NCBI GenBank assembly: GCA_902623995.1 | Contig: CACNWE010000002.1 | Coordinates: 124,001-188,000, forward strand | Source: an uncultured SAR116 cluster alpha proteobacterium | Lineage (GTDB): Bacteria; Pseudomonadota; Alphaproteobacteria; Puniceispirillales; Marisalimonadaceae | Length of the DNA stretch: 64,000 nucleotides | Reading direction: 5' to 3' | Shown here: positions 38,385 through 48,334 of the stretch, piece after piece | How positions within the stretch are numbered: position 1 is the stretch's first letter | How the letters are laid out: each line of letters starts with the position of its first letter | Notes under the pieces: model-generated | Seen by the model: the letters and a program-made list of their open reading frames with translations, nothing else | The model's database searches: none | Told to the model about the DNA's origin: nothing | Program-made: the position numbers and the translations under genes

Positions 38385-39758
38385 TTACTTCGAACCAATT
38401 TTAATTTTATTTTTTATGAGCCATAAACATACCAATGAGGGTATTACCATTATTGTGGTTATTAAAAAAAATGTTCCCCAATCACCTTCAAGCCAATCTA
38501 CTAGAGCTCCCGAAGAAGAAGCAACTAATGTTCTGCCAGCAGTACCTAATGAAGCAAGTAGAGCGTATTGTGTGGCTGTGTAAGTCCTATCAACTAATAA
38601 TGAAATAAACGCTACAAAAGCTACTGTTGCAAATGCTGCTGTAATGTCATCTGCAATTACTGCAACAGCAAATAATAATTCAGATTTTCCAGTCCAAGCC
38701 AAAAAAGCAAATAGTAGGTTAGTTAGTGCCATCAAGCCGCCGGCGAAGAACATTGTTTTTATTGTTCCTGTTCTCATTGCCATGACACCACCTAACAATG
38801 TAAAAACAATAGTTGTAATCCACCCAAGCCCTTTGGAATATATCGCAATCTGTCCTTTTGAAAACCCAATTTCTTTATAAAAAACTATAGACATTCTTCC
38901 AAGAAAAGCTTCACCAATCTTGAATAAGAAAATAAAACCTAATATTCCTAAAGCAATTGCAAAACCATTTTTTTTAAAAAAACTTATTATAGGTCCACCT
39001 ATGGTTCCAGTAATATATATAAAAAATTTAGTTATAAAGTTAATAGATCCAAGTCTTTTTTCGATTGCTTTGTCAGTTTCTTTTTGTTTTGCTTCTCTAT
39101 CAGTTTTAACTGGCTCATAAACAAACATTAAACCAATATTCATCAAAATTATTACAACTCCTAAAACTAAGAATGTGGTTTGCCAATAATCAGGAATACC
39201 CATATTCTCAAAAACTTCAGCTGTAAATAAAGCTAATACGCCTCCTAATTTGTATCCTGTCCACCAACCAACTACTGCCATTGCAGCACCGGCGGCCATG
39301 ACTTTCGTTTCTTTTTCATTTATTTGTTCAATTCTTAGAGCATCAACAGTTATATCTTGTGTTGCTGAAGCAACGGCAATAACTAATCCTACTGAAATTA
39401 ATAAAGCTAAGTTTTGAGATGGGTTTATAAAACTCCAAACTATCAAACTTATTAAAATTATGACTTGCATTAAAACTATCCATGCTCGTCTGTGGCCTAG
39501 TTTTTTTGTTATAAGAGGTATTTGAATTCTATCAATTAATGGAGCCCATAAATAATTAAATGCGTAAACACCAAAAATTAAACCTGCCCAACCAATAGTT
39601 GACCTGCTCAATCCTTCCTCTTTTAGCCAAAGGCTTAAACTACTGGCTATTAGTACCCAGGGAAAACCACTAATAGCACCAAGAAGTGAAATTTTTAGCA
39701 TTCTTAAGTCTTTGTAAACTAAAATTGATTGAAGCCAGCTTTGTTTTTGCTCTACCAT
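38385..39758 (-). CDS. AmpG-like MFS permease (muropeptide importer candidate)
   Basis: A 457-residue, twelve-helix MFS protein. The N-terminal LQSILVYKDLRMLKISLLGAISGFPWVLIASSLSLWLKEEG and the motif APLIDRI are typical of AmpG, the inner-membrane permease that imports GlcNAc-anhydroMurNAc peptides; SATQDITVDALRIEQ matches the AmpG helix-four region. The family also includes acetyl-CoA transporters. The neighbouring peptidoglycan genes support AmpG. It is longer than the minimal AmpG fold but within range. A terminator follows. Confidence 0.8.
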   Translation of the reverse strand: MVEQKQSWLQSILVYKDLRMLKISLLGAISGFPWVLIASSLSLWLKEEGLSRSTIGWAGLIFGVYAFNYLWAPLIDRIQIPLITKKLGHRRAWIVLMQVIILISLIVWSFINPSQNLALLISVGLVIAVASATQDITVDALRIEQINEKETKVMAAGAAMAVVGWWTGYKLGGVLALFTAEVFENMGIPDYWQTTFLVLGVVIILMNIGLMFVYEPVKTDREAKQKETDKAIEKRLGSINFITKFFIYITGTIGGPIISFFKKNGFAIALGILGFIFLFKIGEAFLGRMSIVFYKEIGFSKGQIAIYSKGLGWITTIVFTLLGGVMAMRTGTIKTMFFAGGLMALTNLLFAFLAWTGKSELLFAVAVIADDITAAFATVAFVAFISLLVDRTYTATQYALLASLGTAGRTLVASSSGALVDWLEGDWGTFFLITTIMVIPSLVCLWLIKNKIKIGSK

Positions 39759-39849
39759 AATTTAATATCTCTAAATTTTAAAAAATCTTACTATTATTCT
39801 GTATAAAAATATATTTTTTCTTTCATTAAATTATTTATAATTACTTACT

Positions 39850-40389
39850 ATGAAAAATTGGTTAGTAATAAATCTGAATAAGAAATATTTTCTAAAAGTT
39901 GGCAATCAACTGTTCCCATGTCAAATAGGTGAAGGAGGCCTTGAGAAGGCTGTAAAAAAAACTGAGGGTGATAAAACCACACCTATAGGGAATTGGTATT
40001 TTAAAAAAATTTATTACAGATCAGACAAAGTTTTTAAACCAAAATTCAAGAAAAAAAATGTTTTGAAAGTAAATAAAATTACAAAGAATTGTGGATGGTG
40101 TGATGATATTACAAGTGACAAATATAACAAATATATAAAAATTAGCGATTTTCAATCGCTCAATATTAATCACGAAAAATTATGGAGAGAAGATGATGCC
40201 TATGACTTAATAATTGTTACCTCCCACAATGTCGAACCAACAATTAGAAATAAGGGTAGTGCAATTTTTATTCATTGTAGTTTCTCAGATAATAGAAAAA
40301 CTTCAGGTTGTATCGCTTTGAAAAAAAAAGATTTAGTTTTTTTGTTAGGAAATCTAAATCGTAATACATATATAAAAATTCAAAACTAG
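39850..40389 (+). CDS. Leaderless YkuD-domain L,D-transpeptidase-family protein
   Basis: A 179-residue YkuD protein with the active-site residues His142 and Cys154 in IHCSFSDNRKTSGCIAL. The N-terminus MKNWLVINLNKKYFLK has no signal peptide or membrane helix, so it may stay in the cytosol. Conserved landmarks such as NCGWCDDITSD, LWREDDAYDLII and HNVEPTIRNKGSAIFIH are typical of a short alphaproteobacterial group; whether this is the group characterised as making 1,3-crosslinks in Gluconobacter oxydans (LDTGo) I cannot decide. It might cleave or form peptide bonds of muropeptides. Divergent from the AmpG-like gene and upstream of hppA. Confidence 0.8.
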   Translation: MKNWLVINLNKKYFLKVGNQLFPCQIGEGGLEKAVKKTEGDKTTPIGNWYFKKIYYRSDKVFKPKFKKKNVLKVNKITKNCGWCDDITSDKYNKYIKISDFQSLNINHEKLWREDDAYDLIIVTSHNVEPTIRNKGSAIFIHCSFSDNRKTSGCIALKKKDLVFLLGNLNRNTYIKIQN

Positions 40390-40467
40390 TTAAAAAAAAT
40401 ATAAAACTTTACAGATTTAATTAATCGAATTAAAAGTATTTTTTTTAAATAAAATTAGGGTTAGCAA

Positions 40468-42474
40468 ATGCCATATTCATTAATTTCAGTTATTCTTGGT
40501 CTTCTTGGACTACTGTCAGCTTATTTTGTATACTTGAAGGTGAAGTCCTCATCGGAAGGCGAAGGTCGTGTGAAGGAAATTGGAGATGAAATACACCTTG
40601 GTGCAATGGTGTTTATGTCTGCAGAGTATAAGAGATTAGCTATATTTTGTTTAGTATGTATAGTTGCATTATATTTTTCTCTTGGCTGGCAAACTGCTAT
40701 ATCATTTATGCTTGGAGCATTGTGTTCAGGTACTGCAGGTTTTATAGGTATGTATTCAGCAACAAAGGCAAATGTGAGAACTGCAGTTGCTGCTAAAGAA
40801 AAAGGTGCTTCTGAAGCATTAAATATAGCTTTTTTCGGTGGCTCAATCATGGGACTAACAGTAGCTGCAATGGGTTTGTTTGGTGTAGGAATTTTATTTC
40901 ATTATTTTGCAGGTGATATCAAAACAATTCATGCAATTGAAGGTTTTGCAATGGGTGCTTCATCGGTAGCTTTATTTTCAAGAGTAGGTGGTGGTATATT
41001 TACTAAAAGTGCAGATGTTGGTGCTGACCTTGTGGGTAAGGTGGAGGCAGGGATTCCAGAAGATGATCCTAGAAACCCTGGCGTCATTGCGGATAATGTT
41101 GGTGACAATGTTGGAGATGTAGCTGGAATGGGTTCTGATATTTTTGAATCATATTGTGGATCTATGATAGCATGTATAGCCTTGGCTGCTTCAATGACTA
41201 GCGCTACTATCAACTCGTTAGGTGGTAATCAGTACCTTCTTCAATTTATGCCGTTAGCTTTAGCTTCTTTAGGTATCATATGTTCTTTGCTAGGAATATT
41301 AACTGTAAAAGCTTTTTCCTCGAAAAGCGCAGAAACAGCTCTAAGATATGGTACAATAGGATCTGCAGTACTTTTTGTAGTGTTGTCATATTTTTTGGTT
41401 GATTTAATGAATGTTGCTGTTGGTGTTTGGATTGCTGTGCTTGTTGGCTCAGTTGGAGGTATAGTTGTTGGATTAATCACCGAGTATTATACTGGTGGAA
41501 GTCCTGTAGAAAAAATAGCTAAAGATGGAGAAACTGGTTCTGCTACTGTTTTAATATCAGGTTTGGCAACAGGTATGCAATCAGTTGCAATCCCAGTTTT
41601 AACAATTGTATCTATAATTTTTATATCAAATATATATGCAGGTCTGTATGGAGTTGGTATAGCTGCAGTTGGAATGTTAAGTACAGTTGGTATCACTATG
41701 GCAATAGATGCTTACGGTCCAGTTGCTGACAATGCCGGAGGTATTGCTGAAATGTCTGAGATGGGAAAGGAAACTAGAGAAATTACAGACTCACTTGATG
41801 AAGTTGGAAACACTACTGCAGCTATTGGTAAAGGTTTTGCAATAAGCGCTGCGGCTTTAGCTGCATTGGCCCTTATTAGCGCATATATAGAAAAAATATC
41901 AATTTCTGATGAAAGTTTTGTCTTAGCTATTAACGATCCATTAGTTTTGTGTGGTATGTTCTTAGGAGGTATATTCCCATTTTTGGTAAGCTCTATGACA
42001 ATGACTGCAGTTGGTGATGCTGCTTTTGATATGATTAAAGAAATCAGAAGGCAATTTAAAGAAATCCCAGGTTTGTTGGAGGGTAAAGCAAAACCAGATA
42101 CTGCAAGGTGTGTAGATATTGCAACTAGAGCAGCTTTAAGAAAGATGATAGCACCAGGAGCTTTAGCTGTTTTGTCACCAGTAATCATAGGTTTCTTACT
42201 TGGTCCAAAAGCACTTGGGGGAATGTTAGGTGGTGCACTCATATGTTGCGTTATGATGGCCTTGATGATGTCAAATGCTGGTGGTGCTTGGGATAATGCT
42301 AAAAAGTTTGTAGAAAAAGGAAACTTTGGTGGTAAAGGATCAGAAGTTCATAAAGCAGCAGTTGTTGGAGATACAGTTGGTGACCCACTAAAAGATACAT
42401 CAGGACCATCAATGAACATTTTGATTAATGTTATGGCTATAGTTAGTTTAGTTATAGCCCCGCTATTAGTTTAA
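40468..42474 (+). CDS. hppA: Membrane-bound, ion-pumping pyrophosphatase (K+-dependent type signature)
   Basis: A 668-residue polytopic membrane protein that hydrolyses pyrophosphate and pumps H+ or Na+. Acidic pyrophosphate motifs include the segment of 191-212 with ADVGADLVGKVE just before it and DNVGDNVGDVAGMGSDIFESY; late is VVGDTVGDPLKDTSGPSMN. At the position that distinguishes potassium dependence, the motif reads GNTTAAIGKGFA with Ala451 and Gly454. K+-independent enzymes, such as R. rubrum HppA, have Lys and Thr there, so this enzyme is of the K+-dependent type. Which ion it pumps cannot be told. It recovers energy from biosynthetic pyrophosphate. Confidence 0.95.
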   Translation: MPYSLISVILGLLGLLSAYFVYLKVKSSSEGEGRVKEIGDEIHLGAMVFMSAEYKRLAIFCLVCIVALYFSLGWQTAISFMLGALCSGTAGFIGMYSATKANVRTAVAAKEKGASEALNIAFFGGSIMGLTVAAMGLFGVGILFHYFAGDIKTIHAIEGFAMGASSVALFSRVGGGIFTKSADVGADLVGKVEAGIPEDDPRNPGVIADNVGDNVGDVAGMGSDIFESYCGSMIACIALAASMTSATINSLGGNQYLLQFMPLALASLGIICSLLGILTVKAFSSKSAETALRYGTIGSAVLFVVLSYFLVDLMNVAVGVWIAVLVGSVGGIVVGLITEYYTGGSPVEKIAKDGETGSATVLISGLATGMQSVAIPVLTIVSIIFISNIYAGLYGVGIAAVGMLSTVGITMAIDAYGPVADNAGGIAEMSEMGKETREITDSLDEVGNTTAAIGKGFAISAAALAALALISAYIEKISISDESFVLAINDPLVLCGMFLGGIFPFLVSSMTMTAVGDAAFDMIKEIRRQFKEIPGLLEGKAKPDTARCVDIATRAALRKMIAPGALAVLSPVIIGFLLGPKALGGMLGGALICCVMMALMMSNAGGAWDNAKKFVEKGNFGGKGSEVHKAAVVGDTVGDPLKDTSGPSMNILINVMAIVSLVIAPLLV

Positions 42475-42487
42475 CAAATATAATAAT

Positions 42488-42508
42488 AAAGCTATTTAAA
42501 ATAGCTTT
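42488..42508. terminator. Bidirectional terminator-like hairpin between hppA and mmsB
   Basis: A 21-base inverted repeat, AAAGCTATTT-A-AAATAGCTTT, lies 14 bases after the hppA stop. It is flanked by A-rich and T-rich runs on either side, the layout of a terminator able to work on both strands between convergent genes. The last two bases overlap the mmsB stop codon. The stem is short of GC, so efficiency is uncertain. Confidence 0.55.
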
Positions 42509-43379
42509 ATTTATTAAATTTTGTAATAGCTGAAAAGTCTAAGTATCCTTGGTTTTCATTAACCATTCTTTCAAACCTCTCTCTTGAGTTTTTACCAAAT
42601 GGTGCAGAAGTATTCGTACTTTCAATAGCCTTGAGCGCTATAGTAAGATCTTTTAGCATCAGATCTGCTGAGAAACCAGGTCTAAAGTCATTGTCTGCTG
42701 GACTTGTTGGTCCAACACCTTTTATTGGGCAATAGCTATTTATAGCCCAACAGGAACCAGTTGAGGTTGACAATATTTCAAATAATTTTTCTGGATCCAA
42801 ACCTAAATTCTGCCCTAAAGAAAAGGCTTCTCCTACACCAATCATAGTAGTTGCTAACAACATATTATTACATGCTTTTGTTGCTTGTCCTGAACCAGAG
42901 GAACCACACAACAAAGATTTTTTTCCCATTACTTCAAATAGGGGTAACATCATTTTATAAGCTTTTTCCGTCCCTCCTACCATAAATGTTAATGTTGCTT
43001 GTTCTGCTCCACCTACACCACCCGAAACGGGAGCATCAAGAGATAAGATGTTTCTATCTTCACATTTTTTGTGAAGTTGCTTTGCTTTGTTGACTTCAAT
43101 GGTTGAGCAGTCCACAAATAGAGTACCAGGTACGAACTCATCAATTATATTATCATAAACTTCTTCTACAATGTCACCATTAGGTAACATAGTAATTACA
43201 ATATCTGCACCTTTTGCGATCTCAATTAAATTGTTTGCTTGCTTAAGGCCTTTGGGCAATAGATTATTCACAAATTCTTTATTAATATCGTAACCAACAA
43301 CCTCATAATTAGCTTTAAGAAGATTCATTGTCATTTTAGCTCCCATATTACCTAAGCCAATAAAACCAATTTTTGTCAT
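42507..43379 (-). CDS. mmsB: 3-hydroxyisobutyrate dehydrogenase-family protein
   Basis: A 290-residue beta-hydroxyacid dehydrogenase. The N-terminal NAD motif is IGFIGLGNMGAKM; DAPVSGGVGGAEQATLTFMVGG is the substrate loop and Lys168 in GSSGSGQATKACNN is the catalytic lysine. The sequence resembles 3-hydroxyisobutyrate dehydrogenase of valine breakdown, but tartronate semialdehyde reductase and related activities share these features; no valine-catabolism genes are near. Its start overlaps the stop of the GH84 gene by four bases (ATGA), so it is translated downstream of the hexosaminidase. A function on a sugar-derived acid is speculation. Confidence 0.82.
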   Translation of the reverse strand: MTKIGFIGLGNMGAKMTMNLLKANYEVVGYDINKEFVNNLLPKGLKQANNLIEIAKGADIVITMLPNGDIVEEVYDNIIDEFVPGTLFVDCSTIEVNKAKQLHKKCEDRNILSLDAPVSGGVGGAEQATLTFMVGGTEKAYKMMLPLFEVMGKKSLLCGSSGSGQATKACNNMLLATTMIGVGEAFSLGQNLGLDPEKLFEILSTSTGSCWAINSYCPIKGVGPTSPADNDFRPGFSADLMLKDLTIALKAIESTNTSAPFGKNSRERFERMVNENQGYLDFSAITKFNK

Positions 43380-44536
43380 TCTAATTCTCCTTTTAATAAA
43401 AATTCAGATAGAGGTGCAGTTTGAGTTTTAATCTTTCGTTCTGAGGTTAAAAGTTTTTCACTTATTTGTAAATCTTGCTTCAACCCAAAAATGAATGGAT
43501 ACCATTCTCTCGATAAATGCCCTTTCCATTTCCACAAAAGGAAATCTAGTGCTTGAAAATCTTTATCATTAATATTTATTTTTTTTGCTGGAGGATTAGA
43601 ACCAAAATCTGGTTTTAAAAAAAACTTTTTTATTTTACTGAATTGTTTTGGGACACCGTGAATTTCCAACACCTTTGACCATTCTTTAAAATTGTTCTGA
43701 TCTCTAAAATTATTGGCGAAAATATCCAAAATCAGAAGATCCGTTTTTATTAAACCTGTAGGATTAATCATTACATCATTAATATCCTCTCTTCCAAAAT
43801 AAGGTCCTATGAACAAACGTCTAGGACAATAGTCATTTGAATAGTAATTGTCCCAAAAGATTACTCTATTTTGTATTGTTGTTTTAATCAGTTTATAATT
43901 TGATAAATTTTTAGAAACAATATTTTGCCCACAATAGAACATAATTATTTTTGGATCTAATATCTTACTTAAGTCTTTCAAATAAAAAGGTTCATCTTGA
44001 ATTAATTCGTCAGCGTAAATTCTTGGTACAAAGAAGATACTTTGTCCTAATTCTTTTGAAAGCTTATTTGCCAAAATAGCGTGATAAGTTCCTTCGGATA
44101 CATCAACGCCAAATTTATTTTTAAAATCAGGTGGAATATCATCTAACATTAAGGCTATTGATGTTGCGCCATCATTAAGTAATTGTTTTGCTTTACGTAA
44201 AAGAACATCAAAATCTGATTTTTTATTTATCCTCGATTTTTCATTTAGGTGTTTGAAATTAAAGTCTAACCCAGGTGCAAGGCCTGCGATAATGTCAATT
44301 TTATATTTTTTACTTATGTCTGTGAATTTACGAAAATTTAAACGCCAATTTTTGCTATAATTTTTTTTCCAACATAATCTATGATTTATGTCCTCTTTTG
44401 GGGCATAAAAATAAGTGTTCATATTATTTTTGTACAGACATTTAATTATAAGTTCTCTATGTTCCCATGAAAGAAGTCTTCCATAATAACCCTCTATATA
44501 ACCTCTGATAATTTTTTTATCTGTTATTTTTTTCAT
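43376..44536 (-). CDS. GH84-like beta-N-acetylglucosaminidase, leaderless
   Basis: A 386-residue protein with the glycoside hydrolase 84 (O-GlcNAcase/hyaluronidase-like) catalytic domain. IRGYIEGYYGRLLSWEHRE, then NNMNTYFYAPKEDINHR are GH84 signatures, and the catalytic aspartate pair is Asp132-Asp133 in ALMLDDIPPDF. GH84 enzymes remove terminal beta-GlcNAc by substrate-assisted catalysis. There is no signal peptide or membrane helix, so it should act in the cytosol. Neighbours (AmpG-like permease, AnmK, MurQ, amidase) suggest it splits GlcNAc-anhydroMurNAc, the job of NagZ (GH3) in E. coli. That role is inferred, not shown. Confidence 0.85.
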   Translation of the reverse strand: MKKITDKKIIRGYIEGYYGRLLSWEHRELIIKCLYKNNMNTYFYAPKEDINHRLCWKKNYSKNWRLNFRKFTDISKKYKIDIIAGLAPGLDFNFKHLNEKSRINKKSDFDVLLRKAKQLLNDGATSIALMLDDIPPDFKNKFGVDVSEGTYHAILANKLSKELGQSIFFVPRIYADELIQDEPFYLKDLSKILDPKIIMFYCGQNIVSKNLSNYKLIKTTIQNRVIFWDNYYSNDYCPRRLFIGPYFGREDINDVMINPTGLIKTDLLILDIFANNFRDQNNFKEWSKVLEIHGVPKQFSKIKKFFLKPDFGSNPPAKKININDKDFQALDFLLWKWKGHLSREWYPFIFGLKQDLQISEKLLTSERKIKTQTAPLSEFLLKGELE

Positions 44537-44592
44537 TTGATATCTTTATTAATATTGGAATATTATAATATCGAAATTAGGAGAAAAATATA

Positions 44593-45282
44593 ATGAAAAT
44601 TTTAGCTCTTGGTGCTCATCCTGACGATATAGAAATTTTCATGTATGGTTTAGTTTCTACTTATAAAAAAGAAGGTAACCAAGTATTTACTATGATTGCA
44701 ACTGACGGCTCTAAAGGAGGATCGCCAAAAGACGATTTATTGTCAGAAAAGAGAAAAAAAGAAGCTATTGCTGGATTAAAAAAATTATCAAACCCAAAGT
44801 TTTTAAATATACCTGATGGTGAATTAGGTGAAGATCCTGAGCATAAAAAAATAATTAAAGAAAATATTTTAAAAATTATGCCAGACTTAATAATCACTCA
44901 CTCAAAAAAAGATTATCATTCAGATCATAGGTCTTTATCATTTTTAACAAGTAGTGTTGTAAGTCATTACATTCCAATATTATATTGTGATACTTTAATG
45001 GGCATCAATTTTAATCCCAACTATTACATTGATATAACTGAACATTTTATGTTTAAAGAAAAGGCGATCCTCAAACATGAAACGCAAAAACCACAAAGGT
45101 TTGTTGATTTGTCTAGGTTGATGAATAGTTATAGGGCAGCACAGTGCAATGCTCCAAAAGGCAAATATGCTGAAGCATATTTTTTTGAGCCTTCTTTTCC
45201 TTTTTCAGATATAAGAGATATATTACCATCACCTTTGAAACTTAGACCTTTTCATGTAGAAAATCAAAATGGTTTTTTATGA
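44593..45282 (+). CDS. PIG-L/LmbE-family zinc deacetylase
   Basis: A 229-residue deacetylase of the PIG-L family. The zinc motif is HPDD (His9-Asp12) in ALGAHPDDIEI and HxDH (His109-His112) in DYHSDHRSLS. Family members deacetylate GlcNAc-containing compounds, such as GlcNAc-malate in bacillithiol synthesis or GlcNAc-inositol in mycothiol synthesis, or other N-acetylated sugars. Given the neighbours, a substrate derived from GlcNAc or MurNAc is plausible. It is divergent from the GH84 gene with 56 bases between starts and overlaps the anmK stop by six bases. Confidence 0.87.
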   Translation: MKILALGAHPDDIEIFMYGLVSTYKKEGNQVFTMIATDGSKGGSPKDDLLSEKRKKEAIAGLKKLSNPKFLNIPDGELGEDPEHKKIIKENILKIMPDLIITHSKKDYHSDHRSLSFLTSSVVSHYIPILYCDTLMGINFNPNYYIDITEHFMFKEKAILKHETQKPQRFVDLSRLMNSYRAAQCNAPKGKYAEAYFFEPSFPFSDIRDILPSPLKLRPFHVENQNGFL

Positions 45283-46368
45283 AAACTTGTATAATTCACC
45301 ACCTGAAGATGGTTTTGAAACACCAGTTGTTGAAGGGAATGTAAATGGAAGTTTATAAATTGCTCTAGCTGATAAATATGCAATGAGTTCTGCTTCTATG
45401 TAATCAAATTTAATTCCTAATTCTTTTTCATCTAAAAAACTCAATTCTAATCTTTTACTTAATCTATTAATCAAATATGAATTTTTATATCCACCTCCTG
45501 TTACAATTATATTTTTTATTTTTTTTGGCAATGTTTCAAGACTTATGACTATAGATTCTAATGTAAATTCAAGAAAAGTTGCCATAATATCATTAGTTGA
45601 ATAATTTTTTTGGGTAAGATTTTTGTAAGTTGTTTTAAAAGAGTTTCTATCTAAAGATTTAGGAGGTACTTTTTTAAAAAAATCGTCTTGTAAAAACTTT
45701 GTAACCTCTTCTTTGATCGGGGTCCCTTGAGAGGCAAAATAACCGTTGTCATCAAAACTTTTGTTTAATATAATTTTTGAATAATCATCCATTAATGCGT
45801 TGCCTGGTCCTGTGTCAAAGCCAATTAAATTTTGACCATCCCAATAAGTTAAATTTGCAACTCCTCCAATGTTTAAAATACATGATGGTATTCCTAAACC
45901 TAACTTTTCGATAATAAGTTTATGGTAAATGGGTGCTAGCGGTGCTCCTTGACCACCTAATGCAAGATCATTTGATCTAAAATCAAAAACAACATTTTTA
46001 TTTAGTTTTTTTGATAATATTTTTGGATCACCTAGTTGAATAGAAATTTTTTCTTTTGGGTTGTGATATACTGTTTGTCCATGAAAACCAATTAAGTCAC
46101 ATTTATTGATGATATTAAGGTCTTTTAATGCTAGGTAATGCTCTTCTGTAATTAAATCATCTAAGTATTGCTTTTTAGTCAAATTTAAATTTATATCTTT
46201 TAGTGAAATATTCATTAACTTTTTTTTTGTTGTTACACTATACTCATAAAAGTAATTTTTATTTAATCTTTTTAACCCCAATCCATTGGTTTTAACTAAG
46301 CTAATATCTATTCCATCCATACTAGTCCCAGACATCAGTCCGATAATATTTAAGTATTTATATTTCAA
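45277..46368 (-). CDS. anmK: Anhydro-N-acetylmuramic acid kinase
   Basis: AnmK cleaves 1,6-anhydro-MurNAc and phosphorylates it to MurNAc-6-phosphate using ATP. Motifs are GLMSGTSMDGIDIS at the N-terminus, FHGQTVYHNP, LGGQGAPLAPIYH, and FDTGPGNALMDDY. The best start is TTG at 46368, giving 363 residues and a family-like beginning (KYKYLNIIGLMSGTS); the ATG at 46431 would add 21 atypical residues and overlap murQ. The C-terminal segment lists TTGVSKPSSGGELY and ends the domain normally. It is divergent from murQ, which accepts its product. Confidence 0.94.
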   Translation of the reverse strand: MKYKYLNIIGLMSGTSMDGIDISLVKTNGLGLKRLNKNYFYEYSVTTKKKLMNISLKDINLNLTKKQYLDDLITEEHYLALKDLNIINKCDLIGFHGQTVYHNPKEKISIQLGDPKILSKKLNKNVVFDFRSNDLALGGQGAPLAPIYHKLIIEKLGLGIPSCILNIGGVANLTYWDGQNLIGFDTGPGNALMDDYSKIILNKSFDDNGYFASQGTPIKEEVTKFLQDDFFKKVPPKSLDRNSFKTTYKNLTQKNYSTNDIMATFLEFTLESIVISLETLPKKIKNIIVTGGGYKNSYLINRLSKRLELSFLDEKELGIKFDYIEAELIAYLSARAIYKLPFTFPSTTGVSKPSSGGELYKFS

Positions 46369-46415
46369 AATGAAATTAACCTTTTTAAATAATCTTAAAT
46401 TATATATATTTAAGT

Positions 46416-47156
46416 ATGCATCAAAATACACCTAAAACTGAACTTTTGTATCACAAAAGTAAACCAATTGATCATTTAAGTGTTTCTGAAGGTATATCTT
46501 TAATGATTGAAGAGCAAAAGAAAGCGTCTAATGAGGTAAAAAAAGCGGCCATATCGATTGAAAAAGCTATAGAAGAGATATATAAATATTTACTAATTAA
46601 TTCAAAGGGTAGAATTGTTTACACAGGTGCTGGTACTTCAGCAAGAATAGGTGTACAAGATGGTGTAGAACTTTTTCCAACATTTAATTGGCCAATTGAA
46701 CGTTTAGATTTTATAATTGCCGGAGGTTTACCTGCTTTAATAAAGGCAGTCGAAAATGCTGAAGATGATACTAAATTAGCTGAGAGTATTGTATCGGAAA
46801 AATTAATCCGTCAAGAGGATGTGGTTATTGGACTTGCAGCAAGTGGCAATACCCCTTTTACTTGTAAAGTACTAGAAAAAGCAAAAAAAAACAGTGCACT
46901 TACAGTTGCTATAAGTAACAACCCAAAAGGTAAAATTTTAGATCATGCTGATCATAAAATAATACTTGATACTAAAGAAGAAGTTATTGCAGGTTCTACA
47001 AGACTTAAGGCAGGAACTGCTCAAAAGATTTGTCTAAATATTATCTCTTCAATGGTAATGATTAAAATGGGAAGAGTAAAAAATGGTATTATGAATGAGA
47101 TGGTCCCAACCAATAATAAGTTAAGGTTAAGGAAAAAATTTAACATTAATACATAG
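46416..47156 (+). CDS. murQ: N-acetylmuramic acid 6-phosphate etherase (short form)
   Basis: A SIS-fold etherase that splits MurNAc-6-phosphate into GlcNAc-6-phosphate and D-lactate. GAGTSARIGVQDGVELFPTF and GLAASGNTPF are diagnostic, and the expected catalytic glutamates are Glu85 and Glu116, in line with E. coli Glu83 and Glu114. The protein has 246 residues against about 298 in E. coli: it ends at NEMVPTNNKLRLRKK, without the usual C-terminal UBA-like helical domain. There is no room for the missing part before the next gene 24 bases on, and no frameshifted remainder, so the loss looks genuine. It lies divergent to anmK. Confidence 0.9.
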   Translation: MHQNTPKTELLYHKSKPIDHLSVSEGISLMIEEQKKASNEVKKAAISIEKAIEEIYKYLLINSKGRIVYTGAGTSARIGVQDGVELFPTFNWPIERLDFIIAGGLPALIKAVENAEDDTKLAESIVSEKLIRQEDVVIGLAASGNTPFTCKVLEKAKKNSALTVAISNNPKGKILDHADHKIILDTKEEVIAGSTRLKAGTAQKICLNIISSMVMIKMGRVKNGIMNEMVPTNNKLRLRKKFNINT

Positions 47157-47180
47157 AAACTATATTATAATATAAATTCA

Positions 47181-47933
47181 TCAATTAAAATTCATAATTT
47201 TTATAATTGGGTTATTTTTTTCTGTTCTTGAAATAATATCATCTAGTGGCTCTTTGGATACTTCCATGTGAAATGCATTAGCATGAATACAATTTTTATT
47301 ATCTGTCATAATACCAACATGACCTTTCCAAAAAACTACAAAACCACGTTTAAGAAAATTTTTGTCTTTGATTATTTCTTTTTTAAGTAATAACTGATCA
47401 ATAGAATTTCGAGGTATATTTTCTCCATAACATTGATACGATAATTGAAGTAAAGCTGAACAGTCCAAGCCTATTGAATTTCTACCTCCCCAAACGTAAG
47501 GAGTTCCAATCAATTTTTCAGCTATACTTACCCAATCCTTTATTCTTCCACCAATTTTAATTAAATGATTACTAGGAACATAAGCATATTTAACATTATC
47601 TTCATACAAATAGACCTTAGCCCATTTTTTATCAATATCTTTAACACGAACCTGCGCGCCCATTGGCAAATAATTTAAGCAACCTGACTTAACATCGTTA
47701 TTCTTGAATAGAAATGTTCTTTTTGAGAGTATTCTGTGAGAGGAAGGTAACATATTACTTAAATATTTTTCTTCGACCCATCCTATATAATTATCAGTTA
47801 GTAATTGACAATAATACCAATTTGAATGATGATCTAAAATTTTTACAGTTTCTCCAAACAAACATTCTGTTTCTAATCCTGACTTATTACTAGGTTTCGA
47901 TCTCATTGGAACAGATGGTTCAATAACATTCAT
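47181..47933 (-). CDS. NlpC/P60 peptidase with SH3-type domains, leaderless
   Basis: A 250-residue protein: SH3b-like domains in the first half (for example WYYCQLLTDNYIGWVEEKYL), then an NlpC/P60 domain with catalytic Cys158 in SIGLDCSALLQLSYQ and His in KGHVGIMTD. The layout resembles YkfC-type gamma-D-glutamyl-L-diamino-acid endopeptidases that trim recycled peptides. No signal peptide is visible, so it is likely cytosolic. It starts within the last codons of the amidase gene (four-base overlap), so the two are co-translated. Substrate: probably muropeptide stem peptide. Confidence 0.87.
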   Translation of the reverse strand: MNVIEPSVPMRSKPSNKSGLETECLFGETVKILDHHSNWYYCQLLTDNYIGWVEEKYLSNMLPSSHRILSKRTFLFKNNDVKSGCLNYLPMGAQVRVKDIDKKWAKVYLYEDNVKYAYVPSNHLIKIGGRIKDWVSIAEKLIGTPYVWGGRNSIGLDCSALLQLSYQCYGENIPRNSIDQLLLKKEIIKDKNFLKRGFVVFWKGHVGIMTDNKNCIHANAFHMEVSKEPLDDIISRTEKNNPIIKIMNFN

Positions 47934-48334
47934 AAATTTTTGTCTTTACACCAATTTTTAACATCAAAATTTGGACATGTCTTCGATGTATTACCAGTTT
48001 CGCAATGTCCAACGATTTTTGCTTGCGGATGCAAGGCCTTCCAAGATTTTAATACTCTTTCTAAGGAAATAAACTGTTTTTTAGTAAAATTGTCACGACC
48101 AATAAGGCAAACTCCTAAACTAATATGATTTTTACCTTTTACATGTGCACCAATCCAATATTCTGGTCTACCATTTTCAACATTACCAGATCTACAAATT
48201 ATTTTGTGGTAACCTATACCATCCCAACCAAAATTGAGATGCATTTTATGAATATCTAAGGCACGTAAATCTTTACTATTATCAGTATCTGAACAGTGTA
48301 TTACTAAAAACTCTATATTTGAACTTACAAGCAT
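47930..48334 (-). CDS. N-acetylmuramoyl-L-alanine amidase (T7-lysozyme-like, AmpD-family)
   Basis: A 134-residue zinc amidase of the Amidase_2 family, small like T7 lysozyme. The probable zinc ligands are His13 in LVIHCSDTD, His110 in VGHCETGN and Cys120 in SKTCPNFD, with Tyr42 in GIGYHKII and Lys118 as the likely catalytic residues. It cleaves the bond between MurNAc (or anhydro-MurNAc) and L-Ala. There is no signal peptide, so a cytosolic AmpD-like recycling role is consistent. It is upstream of and overlaps the NlpC/P60 gene. Confidence 0.9.
   Translation of the reverse strand: MLVSSNIEFLVIHCSDTDNSKDLRALDIHKMHLNFGWDGIGYHKIICRSGNVENGRPEYWIGAHVKGKNHISLGVCLIGRDNFTKKQFISLERVLKSWKALHPQAKIVGHCETGNTSKTCPNFDVKNWCKDKNL

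What the first reader, a model, noticed from the sequence alone, without database searches (positions are those of the whole stretch)
38385..48334. Peptidoglycan-recycling neighbourhood using a GH84 enzyme in place of NagZ
Within 10 kb lie an AmpG-like permease, a leaderless GH84 hexosaminidase, a leaderless AmpD-like amidase, a leaderless NlpC/P60 peptidase, AnmK and MurQ: a full cytosolic path from imported anhydro-muropeptide to GlcNAc-6-P, stem peptide and D-lactate. NagZ, normally GH3, is the only missing step in the window. A cytosolic GH84 would be a non-orthologous replacement that I have not seen described. The PIG-L deacetylase and the 3-hydroxyisobutyrate dehydrogenase-like gene (overlapping the GH84 gene) may be extra steps.
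Basis: partly seen in the sequence, partly recalled or inferred. Interest (0 to 1): 0.75.

Follow-up and report, generated by a model that had tools for sequence, protein, structure and literature searches.

The report
GH84 replaces NagZ in wall recycling
A group of marine bacteria (SAR116) seems to recycle its cell wall with an enzyme related to human O-GlcNAcase doing the job that the unrelated enzyme NagZ does in E. coli; the gene pattern is strong, but the enzyme itself has not been tested.

Summary
The window is a SAR116 genome. Its 10-kb cluster encodes AmpG, a leaderless YkuD protein, a GH84 hexosaminidase, a PIG-L deacetylase, AnmK, MurQ, an NlpC/P60 peptidase and a T7-lysozyme-like amidase. 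GH3/NagZ is absent from 61 of 61 order genomes, its own included (23 near-complete), although 320 of 385 class genomes have GH3. GH84 tracks AnmK (both in 41 genomes, one alone in 3, neither in 17) and lies within 3.4 kb of it in 39 of 39 same-contig cases. It has no leader, keeps the catalytic residues of human O-GlcNAcase and folds like it. Two loci from MAGs labelled Granulosicoccaceae (Gammaproteobacteria) show a tight ampD-anmK-GH84 operon. A distant GH84 clade sits with anmK in Novosphingobium and one other alphaproteobacterium, so recruitment probably happened twice. PIG-L may stand in for NagA, which is over cut-off in only 6 of 61 genomes, and YkuD for LdcA. The 3-hydroxyisobutyrate dehydrogenase looks like a mere neighbour. 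Against: 17 class genomes keep AnmK with neither GH3 nor GH84. Activity on GlcNAc-anhydroMurNAc is inferred, not shown. Verdict: a non-orthologous replacement in a known pathway.

The parts
38385..39758 (-). AmpG-family anhydromuropeptide permease
   Evidence: TIGR00901 366.8 bits over cut-off 350; in 39 of 39 full-flank SAR116-like loci
39850..40389 (+). Leaderless YkuD-domain protein, candidate cytosolic L,D-carboxypeptidase (ElsL-like role)
   Evidence: PF03734 5.6e-12; N-terminal hydropathy 0.69, like cytosolic controls; in 37 of 39 full-flank SAR116-like loci; role by analogy with PMC8649774 (passages)
42507..43379 (-). 3-hydroxyisobutyrate dehydrogenase, overlaps GH84 by 4 bases; probably not a pathway step
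   Evidence: TIGR01692 341.3 bits over cut-off 291.6; in 25 of 39 full-flank SAR116-like loci, with an M19 dipeptidase in that place in 8 others
43376..44536 (-). Leaderless GH84 beta-N-acetylglucosaminidase, proposed stand-in for NagZ
   Evidence: PF07555 1.5e-45; model pLDDT 89.3, pTM 0.90, Foldseek best match OgOGA 1.6e-23, then human OGA; catalytic D132/D133 invariant in 53 of 53
44593..45282 (+). PIG-L/LmbE-family deacetylase, possible stand-in for NagA
   Evidence: PF02585 6.1e-24; nearest solved chains LmbE-related 2ixd and diacetylchitobiose deacetylase; beside GH84 in 36 of 41 informative GH84+ genomes, with NagA over cut-off in none of those 36
45277..46431 (-). AnmK, anhydro-N-acetylmuramic acid kinase (true start probably inside this ORF)
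   Evidence: PF03702 1.4e-74; NF007141 361.6 bits over cut-off 352
46416..47156 (+). MurQ, MurNAc-6-P etherase, short form without the C-terminal part of the model
   Evidence: NF003915 274 bits over cut-off 168, model positions 4-242 of 300
47181..47933 (-). Leaderless SH3 + NlpC/P60 peptidase, dipeptidyl-peptidase VI type
   Evidence: PF18348, PF00877; PDB matches 3pvq and 3npf (dipeptidyl-peptidase VI) and 3h41
47930..48334 (-). Leaderless Amidase_2, T7-lysozyme-like, AmpD role
   Evidence: PF01510 6.8e-12; T7 lysozyme 1lba 86 bits; overlaps the NlpC/P60 start by 4 bases

Best explanation
The cluster is a cytosolic peptidoglycan-recycling unit in which a leaderless GH84 enzyme has displaced NagZ. 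AmpG imports GlcNAc-anhydroMurNAc-peptides. The T7-lysozyme-like amidase removes the stem peptide, and the YkuD and NlpC/P60 enzymes trim it. GH84 cleaves the beta-GlcNAc from anhydroMurNAc by substrate-assisted catalysis (D132/D133, equivalent to human OGA D174/D175). AnmK and MurQ turn anhydroMurNAc into GlcNAc-6-P and D-lactate. Shown: gene content, families, absence of GH3 and GH20, linkage, co-loss, lack of leader, conserved active site, fold. Inferred: substrate, order of steps, and that no other enzyme does the step.
For: GH3 0 of 61 order genomes, 0 of 23 near-complete, with the control ringing in E. coli and Caulobacter; GH3 in 320 of 385 class genomes. GH20 0 of 61. GH84 in 43 of 61, 20 of 23 near-complete. 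GH84 and AnmK: both 41, GH84 alone 2, AnmK alone 1, neither 17; near-complete genomes without GH84 (G013, G030, G059) also lack AnmK and an over-cut-off MurQ. GH84-AnmK gap at most 3.4 kb in 39 of 39 same-contig genomes (in the other 2 of 41 the genes are on different contigs). Two loci from Granulosicoccaceae-labelled MAGs have ampD, anmK and GH84 in tandem, touching or overlapping; 9 of 9 such loci have a recycling gene nearby, AnmK in 4. A second, distant GH84 clade lies beside anmK, with murQ, nagK and D-lactate dehydrogenase in L175 and nagA, nagK-like and D-lactate dehydrogenase genes in Novosphingobium. No leader. Active site conserved.
Against: No activity data. 17 other class genomes have AnmK but no GH3 and no GH84, so GH3 loss does not force a GH84. 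G041 has AnmK and MurQ without GH84 or GH3 (86% complete). Four Fibrobacterota members of the clade have no recycling neighbours in the stretch held, and 2 of the 4 genomes keep GH3. Leaderless GH84s in other alphaproteobacteria can lie away from recycling genes (L171-L174, 4 of 5 looked at). No MurQ was found by tblastn in the two Novosphingobium stretches. Two residues lining the OGA pocket are changed, T250 to C and V254 to I. Co-presence counts are not phylogenetically independent, and adjacent genes can vanish together from incomplete assemblies.
Confidence: 0.85

Rival explanations
1. The GH84 is a cytosolic protein O-GlcNAcase, paired with an O-GlcNAc transferase as in Thermobaculum, and lies beside recycling genes without acting in recycling.
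For: Nearest solved relatives by sequence and fold are human OGA and OgOGA; a bacterial OGA/OGT pair is reported for Thermobaculum (PMC4683255, search listing and abstract start only).
Against: Linkage and co-loss with AnmK and MurQ, tandem operons in another class, and absence of the canonical enzyme for the same bond. Presence of an OGT was not tested.
Confidence: 0.05
2. The GH84 serves scavenged sugar: it trims imported chitobiose or other GlcNAc oligosaccharides, with the PIG-L protein as a diacetylchitobiose-type deacetylase.
For: The PIG-L protein matches diacetylchitobiose deacetylase at 1.4e-10; GH84 enzymes release terminal GlcNAc.
Against: The linked importer is AmpG and the linked sugar genes are AnmK and MurQ, specific for anhydroMurNAc and MurNAc-6-P; GH84 catalysis uses the 2-acetamido group (PMC10636738, passages), so a deacetylase acting first would block it.
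Confidence: 0.06
3. The glucosaminidase step is absent or done by an undetected enzyme, and GH84 has an unrelated role.
For: 17 class genomes keep AnmK with neither GH3 nor GH84.
Against: GH84 is the only candidate of the three N-acetylglucosaminidase families searched (GH3, GH20, GH84) and is locked to the cluster.
Confidence: 0.04

Closest known systems
NagZ (GH3 beta-N-acetylglucosaminidase) of E. coli, Caulobacter, Agrobacterium
   Same: Same proposed reaction, cytosolic place and neighbouring pathway enzymes
   Different: Unrelated family: GH84 with substrate-assisted catalysis and a DD pair; no GH3 domain at all
GH84 O-GlcNAcases (human OGA, OgOGA, BtGH84, CpNagJ)
   Same: Same fold and catalytic residues
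   Different: Single 386-residue leaderless protein locked to anhydroMurNAc genes; T250 and V254 equivalents changed; own clade, 100/100 apart from the five other alphaproteobacterial GH84s put in the tree (human and bacterial OGAs of known structure were not in that tree)
ElsL, cytosolic YkuD L,D-carboxypeptidase of Acinetobacter (PMC8649774, passages)
   Same: A leaderless YkuD protein replacing LdcA in recycling; the same kind of displacement
   Different: ElsL is proven; the SAR116 YkuD protein is only inferred and was not compared with ElsL by sequence
YejBEF-YepA replacing AmpG in Agrobacterium (PMC9790009, passages)
   Same: Non-orthologous replacement of one recycling step in Alphaproteobacteria
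   Different: Replaces the importer; NagZ is kept there

Membership tests
GH84 | NAGidase domain PF07555 over the curated cut-off | tested here: met
   156.2 bits, cut-off 25
GH84 | Catalytic Asp pair (human OGA D174/D175; roles from PMC10636738 passages) | tested here: met
   D132/D133 in 53 of 53
GH84 | GlcNAc-binding residues G67, K98, N280, D285, N313 | tested here: met
   All conserved in 53 of 53; T250 is C in 45 of 53 and V254 is I in 42 of 53
GH84 | OGA-like fold | tested here: met
   Foldseek 1.6e-23 to OgOGA, TM 0.74 by query length
NagZ (GH3) | GH3 domain PF00933 | tested here: not met
   The gene matches only PF07555; no GH3 in the genome
NagZ (GH3) | Cytosolic, no leader | tested here: met
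   Only three codons between an in-frame stop and the ATG; no hydrophobic N-terminus
NagZ (GH3) | Cleaves GlcNAc-anhydroMurNAc | not testable with these tools
   Needs purified enzyme
Anhydromuropeptide recycling pathway | AmpG, amidase, AnmK and MurQ present together | tested here: met
Anhydromuropeptide recycling pathway | NagA for GlcNAc-6-P | tested here: not met
   TIGR00221 over cut-off in 6 of 61 genomes, not in the window's own
ElsL-class L,D-carboxypeptidase | Leaderless YkuD protein with cytosolic L,D-carboxypeptidase activity | tested here: inconclusive
   Leaderless YkuD domain shown; activity and orthology to ElsL not tested
O-GlcNAc system | An O-GlcNAc transferase beside the OGA | not tested

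The most novel reading that the evidence does not exclude
SAR116 has rebuilt the peptidoglycan-recycling pathway with several unrelated or distant enzymes at once: GH84 for NagZ, a PIG-L deacetylase for NagA, a cytosolic YkuD protein for LdcA and a T7-lysozyme-like amidase for AmpD. GH84 was recruited into cytosolic recycling at least twice, once in the SAR116/Granulosicoccaceae clade and once in sphingomonad-type clusters, so members of this enzyme family act on cell-wall sugar rather than on protein O-GlcNAc.
Probability: 0.4. Interest if true: 0.75.

Novelty: new variant of a known kind. Interest (0 to 1): 0.64.

Why it matters
A survey that scores peptidoglycan recycling by nagZ would score SAR116, a large group of ocean bacteria (recalled), as unable to do the central step. 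The case gives GH84, known mainly as O-GlcNAcase, a likely ordinary bacterial job, offers a reason why leaderless GH84s occur in bacteria, and allows a clean test with the GH84-selective inhibitor Thiamet-G (selectivity recalled). It adds NagZ to the steps already known to be replaced or bypassed: LdcA (PMC8649774), AmpG (PMC9790009) and MurQ (PMC13046382; passages of each).

Tried and rejected
Considered and rejected: a NagZ hidden elsewhere; GH20 as substitute (0 of 61); an exported GH84; the hydroxyisobutyrate dehydrogenase as a pathway step (over cut-off for HIBADH; only part of the loci have it). The three GH3 genes found in Granulosicoccaceae-labelled genomes looked like counter-examples, but two begin with a lipobox-like leader (hydropathy 2.36 and 2.38) and one has a hydrophobic N-terminal stretch, read by eye, so they look exported rather than cytosolic; their GH3 stretches score 134-156 bits on the NagZ model against a cut-off of 207, though only the domain stretch was scanned. 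The idea that PIG-L replaces NagA was tested and is only moderately supported: NagA over cut-off in 2 of 5 GH84+ genomes without PIG-L beside GH84 and 0 of 36 with it (p 0.012, not phylogenetically corrected), but G037, G043 and G058 have neither, and PIG-L elsewhere in a genome was not searched. The YkuD protein had no PDB match.

Led nowhere: the second structure aligner was not available; the plasmid-collection hit in Aeromonas caviae has no annotation there and no recycling neighbours by tblastn. Whether the Novosphingobium records or G329 also carry a NagZ was not determined; G329 has 5 GH3 matches, of which the three listed ones have open frames of 829-881 aa. One of two structure jobs, one of three fold searches and 4 of 30 annotated-region calls were used.
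Full report
What is there. The window is G000:C2:124001-188000 of a 2.08-Mb, 89%-complete genome. Its closest named relatives are SAR116 cluster genomes (94% identity over GH84 to AG-892-O16), so I place it in SAR116 (order Puniceispirillales, name recalled); one closed relative (G042, 2,753,527 bases) has the size I recall for Candidatus Puniceispirillum marinum IMCC1322. One gene was not listed: a leaderless YkuD-domain protein at 39850-40389.

NagZ is absent. The GH3 model PF00933 finds nothing in the genome and nothing in 61 genomes of the order, its own included, 23 of them at least 90% complete, while the same search rings in E. coli and Caulobacter. Across 385 genomes drawn from the class, 320 have GH3. 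GH20 is absent too (0 of 61). GH84 is found in 43 of the 61, 20 of 23 near-complete, but in only 11 of 385 class genomes: the 5 drawn from this order, which lack GH3, and 6 others, all of which have GH3.

GH84 travels with the anhydroMurNAc genes. In the 61 order genomes GH84 and AnmK are both present in 41, GH84 alone in 2 (G018 and G052, where GH84 lies at a contig end), AnmK alone in 1 (G041) and neither in 17. Among the 23 near-complete genomes the split is 19, 1, 0, 3, and the three without GH84 (G013, G030, G059) also lack an over-cut-off MurQ. The two genes share a contig in 39 of the 41 genomes, always within 3.4 kb and in 38 within 2 kb. A scan of named genomes gave 80 loci, the best 80 of 138; many are the same records as genomes among the 61, so this is not an independent sample. 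I count 67 as SAR116-like (nearly all titled SAR116, Puniceispirillum, Alphaproteobacteria or Proteobacteria). Of these, 39 have more than 9 kb on both sides of GH84; all 39 carry AmpG and AnmK, 37 the YkuD gene, 37 PIG-L, 35 MurQ, 28 NlpC/P60 and 27 the amidase (tblastn with the window proteins). The five loci without AmpG, AmpD, AnmK or MurQ all have less than 1 kb upstream of GH84.

The link holds outside SAR116. Nine loci come from MAGs whose records name Granulosicoccaceae, a gammaproteobacterial family. L081 and L082 have amidase, AnmK and GH84 in one direction, touching or overlapping, and all nine have at least one recycling gene within about 5 kb: the amidase in 8, AmpG in 5, AnmK in 4, MurQ in 3. 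Six of the nine genomes lack GH3; the three GH3 proteins in the others begin with a lipobox-like leader or a hydrophobic stretch and so are probably exported. Four Fibrobacterota members have no recycling neighbours in the stretch held, and 2 of the 4 genomes have GH3. The labels rest on record titles; MAG mis-binning was not excluded. In the tree the Granulosicoccaceae rows do not form one group but lie nearest the window-genus clade with middling support (87/97), which would fit transfer between lineages; many rows differ in letter make-up, and the root is a midpoint.

A second recruitment. I fetched the wider surroundings of the six non-SAR116 alphaproteobacterial GH84s as a control (one, G285, lies on a 3.3-kb contig and gave no wider stretch). 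Four of the other five (L171-L174) have no recycling neighbours by tblastn, but L175 (G329) holds AnmK, AmpG, a GntR regulator and MurQ, divergent from a NagK-like kinase, GH84 and D-lactate dehydrogenase. A plasmid search led to Novosphingobium sp. EMRT-2, annotated as AnmK, a protein-phosphatase-like gene, a SIS protein, NagA, GH84, D-lactate dehydrogenase and a BadF-type ATPase, and tblastn shows AnmK, the SIS protein, NagA, GH84, D-lactate dehydrogenase and the kinase in Novosphingobium sp. RL4 too; no MurQ was found in either Novosphingobium stretch. The L175 GH84 is about 26% identical to the SAR116 enzyme over 241 columns and separated from it with 100/100 support (as L054; the Novosphingobium sequences, about 53% identical to L175's, were not in that tree), so this looks like an independent case. 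An Asticcacaulis plasmid GH84 with a signal-like N-terminus sits beside glycosidases such as GH92 and alpha-L-fucosidase instead.

The enzyme. In the window only three codons separate an in-frame stop from the ATG, and the conserved motif begins at residue 12. In 67 of 79 readable named homologues (one of 80 lacked the motif pattern) the earliest start leaves fewer than 18 residues before the motif; of the other 12, only the Fibrobacterota locus L133 has a hydropathy value above 1 (1.85). Aligned to human OGA (numbering worked out by me from that alignment), the residues equivalent to G67, K98, D174, D175, Y219, W278, N280, D285 and N313 are invariant in 53 of 53 sequences; T250 is C in 45 and V254 is I in 42. 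D174/D175 as the assisting and acid-base residues and G67, K98, N280, D285, N313 among the sugar contacts are from PMC10636738 (passages read). The AlphaFold2 model (pLDDT 89.3, pTM 0.90) matches OgOGA best, then human OGA.

How it most likely works. AmpG imports the anhydro-muropeptide. The amidase, closest to T7 lysozyme among solved structures, removes the peptide. The YkuD protein may trim the terminal D-Ala as the leaderless YkuD enzyme ElsL does in Acinetobacter (PMC8649774, passages). The NlpC/P60 protein, closest to dipeptidyl-peptidase VI and to 3h41 (3h41 recalled as a YkfC), cuts the tripeptide, and in other SAR116 lineages an M19 dipeptidase gene follows GH84. GH84 splits GlcNAc from anhydroMurNAc. 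AnmK and MurQ yield GlcNAc-6-P and D-lactate. In the E. coli pathway AmpD and NagZ can act in either order (legend in PMC9790009, passages), and the same is assumed here.

Downstream of MurQ. NagA is over cut-off in only 6 of 61 genomes, not in the window genome. In the L046, L103, L113, L122 and L123 clusters NagA is present and PIG-L is not. G039 has NagA and no PIG-L next to GH84, while G053 of the same genus has PIG-L and no NagA. PIG-L lies beside GH84 in 36 of 41 informative GH84+ genomes (43 less G018 and G052, cut at the contig end); NagA occurs in 0 of those 36 and in 2 of the other 5 (Fisher p 0.012, without correction for kinship). G037, G043 and G058 have neither. A PIG-L-for-NagA swap is therefore plausible but open.

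Results against. 17 class genomes outside the order keep AnmK without GH3 or GH84, 8 of them at least 90% complete, so AnmK alone does not prove that a glucosaminidase of these families is needed. G041 has AnmK, MurQ and NagA but neither GH84 nor GH3. An OGT was not searched for. Leaderless GH84s away from recycling genes exist (L171-L174).

What is in print. Searches of an open-access library listed no paper on a GH84 enzyme in peptidoglycan recycling, judged from titles and abstract starts of the listed papers only: searches (1 of 1 listed; 0; 25 of 46; 1 of 1; 15 of 42; 1 of 1; 40 of 112) and, for PIG-L with NagA, 68 (2 of 2). Most subscription journals are not held. The Caulobacter study PMC13046382 (passages) describes a NagZ-based pathway with no MurQ, and GH84 does not occur in its text. 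Related replacements are known for LdcA (ElsL) and AmpG (YejBEF-YepA) but, in the passages read, not for NagZ.

Verdict. It is a new variant of a known pathway; biochemical proof is missing.

Noticed in passing
44593-45282; L046, L103, L113, L122, L123: The PIG-L deacetylase gene and NagA exclude each other in the SAR116 clusters seen; most of these genomes lack NagA over cut-off, so PIG-L may do NagA's job. Three genomes have neither.
   Followed up: partly
39850-40389: A leaderless YkuD protein is conserved near AmpG in 37 of 39 full-flank SAR116-like loci; candidate cytosolic L,D-carboxypeptidase like ElsL.
   Followed up: partly
L175 3616-12191; L176 3664-11652; L178: AnmK with MurQ or NagA, a NagK-like gene and D-lactate dehydrogenase around a different GH84 clade, on two Novosphingobium plasmid records and in one unnamed alphaproteobacterium.
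   Followed up: partly
L045 8207-9226, L112 6626-7654 and others: An M19 dipeptidase gene directly follows GH84 in 23 of 67 SAR116-like loci, in the place that HIBADH takes in the window genus; it may cleave L-Ala-D-Glu from the stem peptide.
   Followed up: partly
46416-47156: MurQ is short (246 aa, model positions 4-242 of 300), and 37 of the 42 over-cut-off MurQ matches in the order likewise end at model position 238-253; not a single-genome truncation.
   Followed up: no
class survey: 17 alphaproteobacterial genomes outside the order (8 at least 90% complete) keep AnmK but have neither GH3 nor GH84; another replacement or another use of AnmK may exist.
   Followed up: no
47930-48334: The AmpD-role amidase is closest to T7 lysozyme among solved structures (86 bits); no chain named AmpD was among its matches.
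   Followed up: partly
40468-42474: A membrane pyrophosphatase lies inside the recycling cluster in the window genus; its homologue is 87-100% identical in 28 of 31 named loci that have it and about 45% in three. No link to recycling known.
   Followed up: no
45277-46431 / 46416-47156: The AnmK ORF as called starts with GTG and overlaps the divergent MurQ start by 16 bases; the GLMSGTSMDG stretch well inside it suggests a later true start and a short shared promoter region.
   Followed up: no
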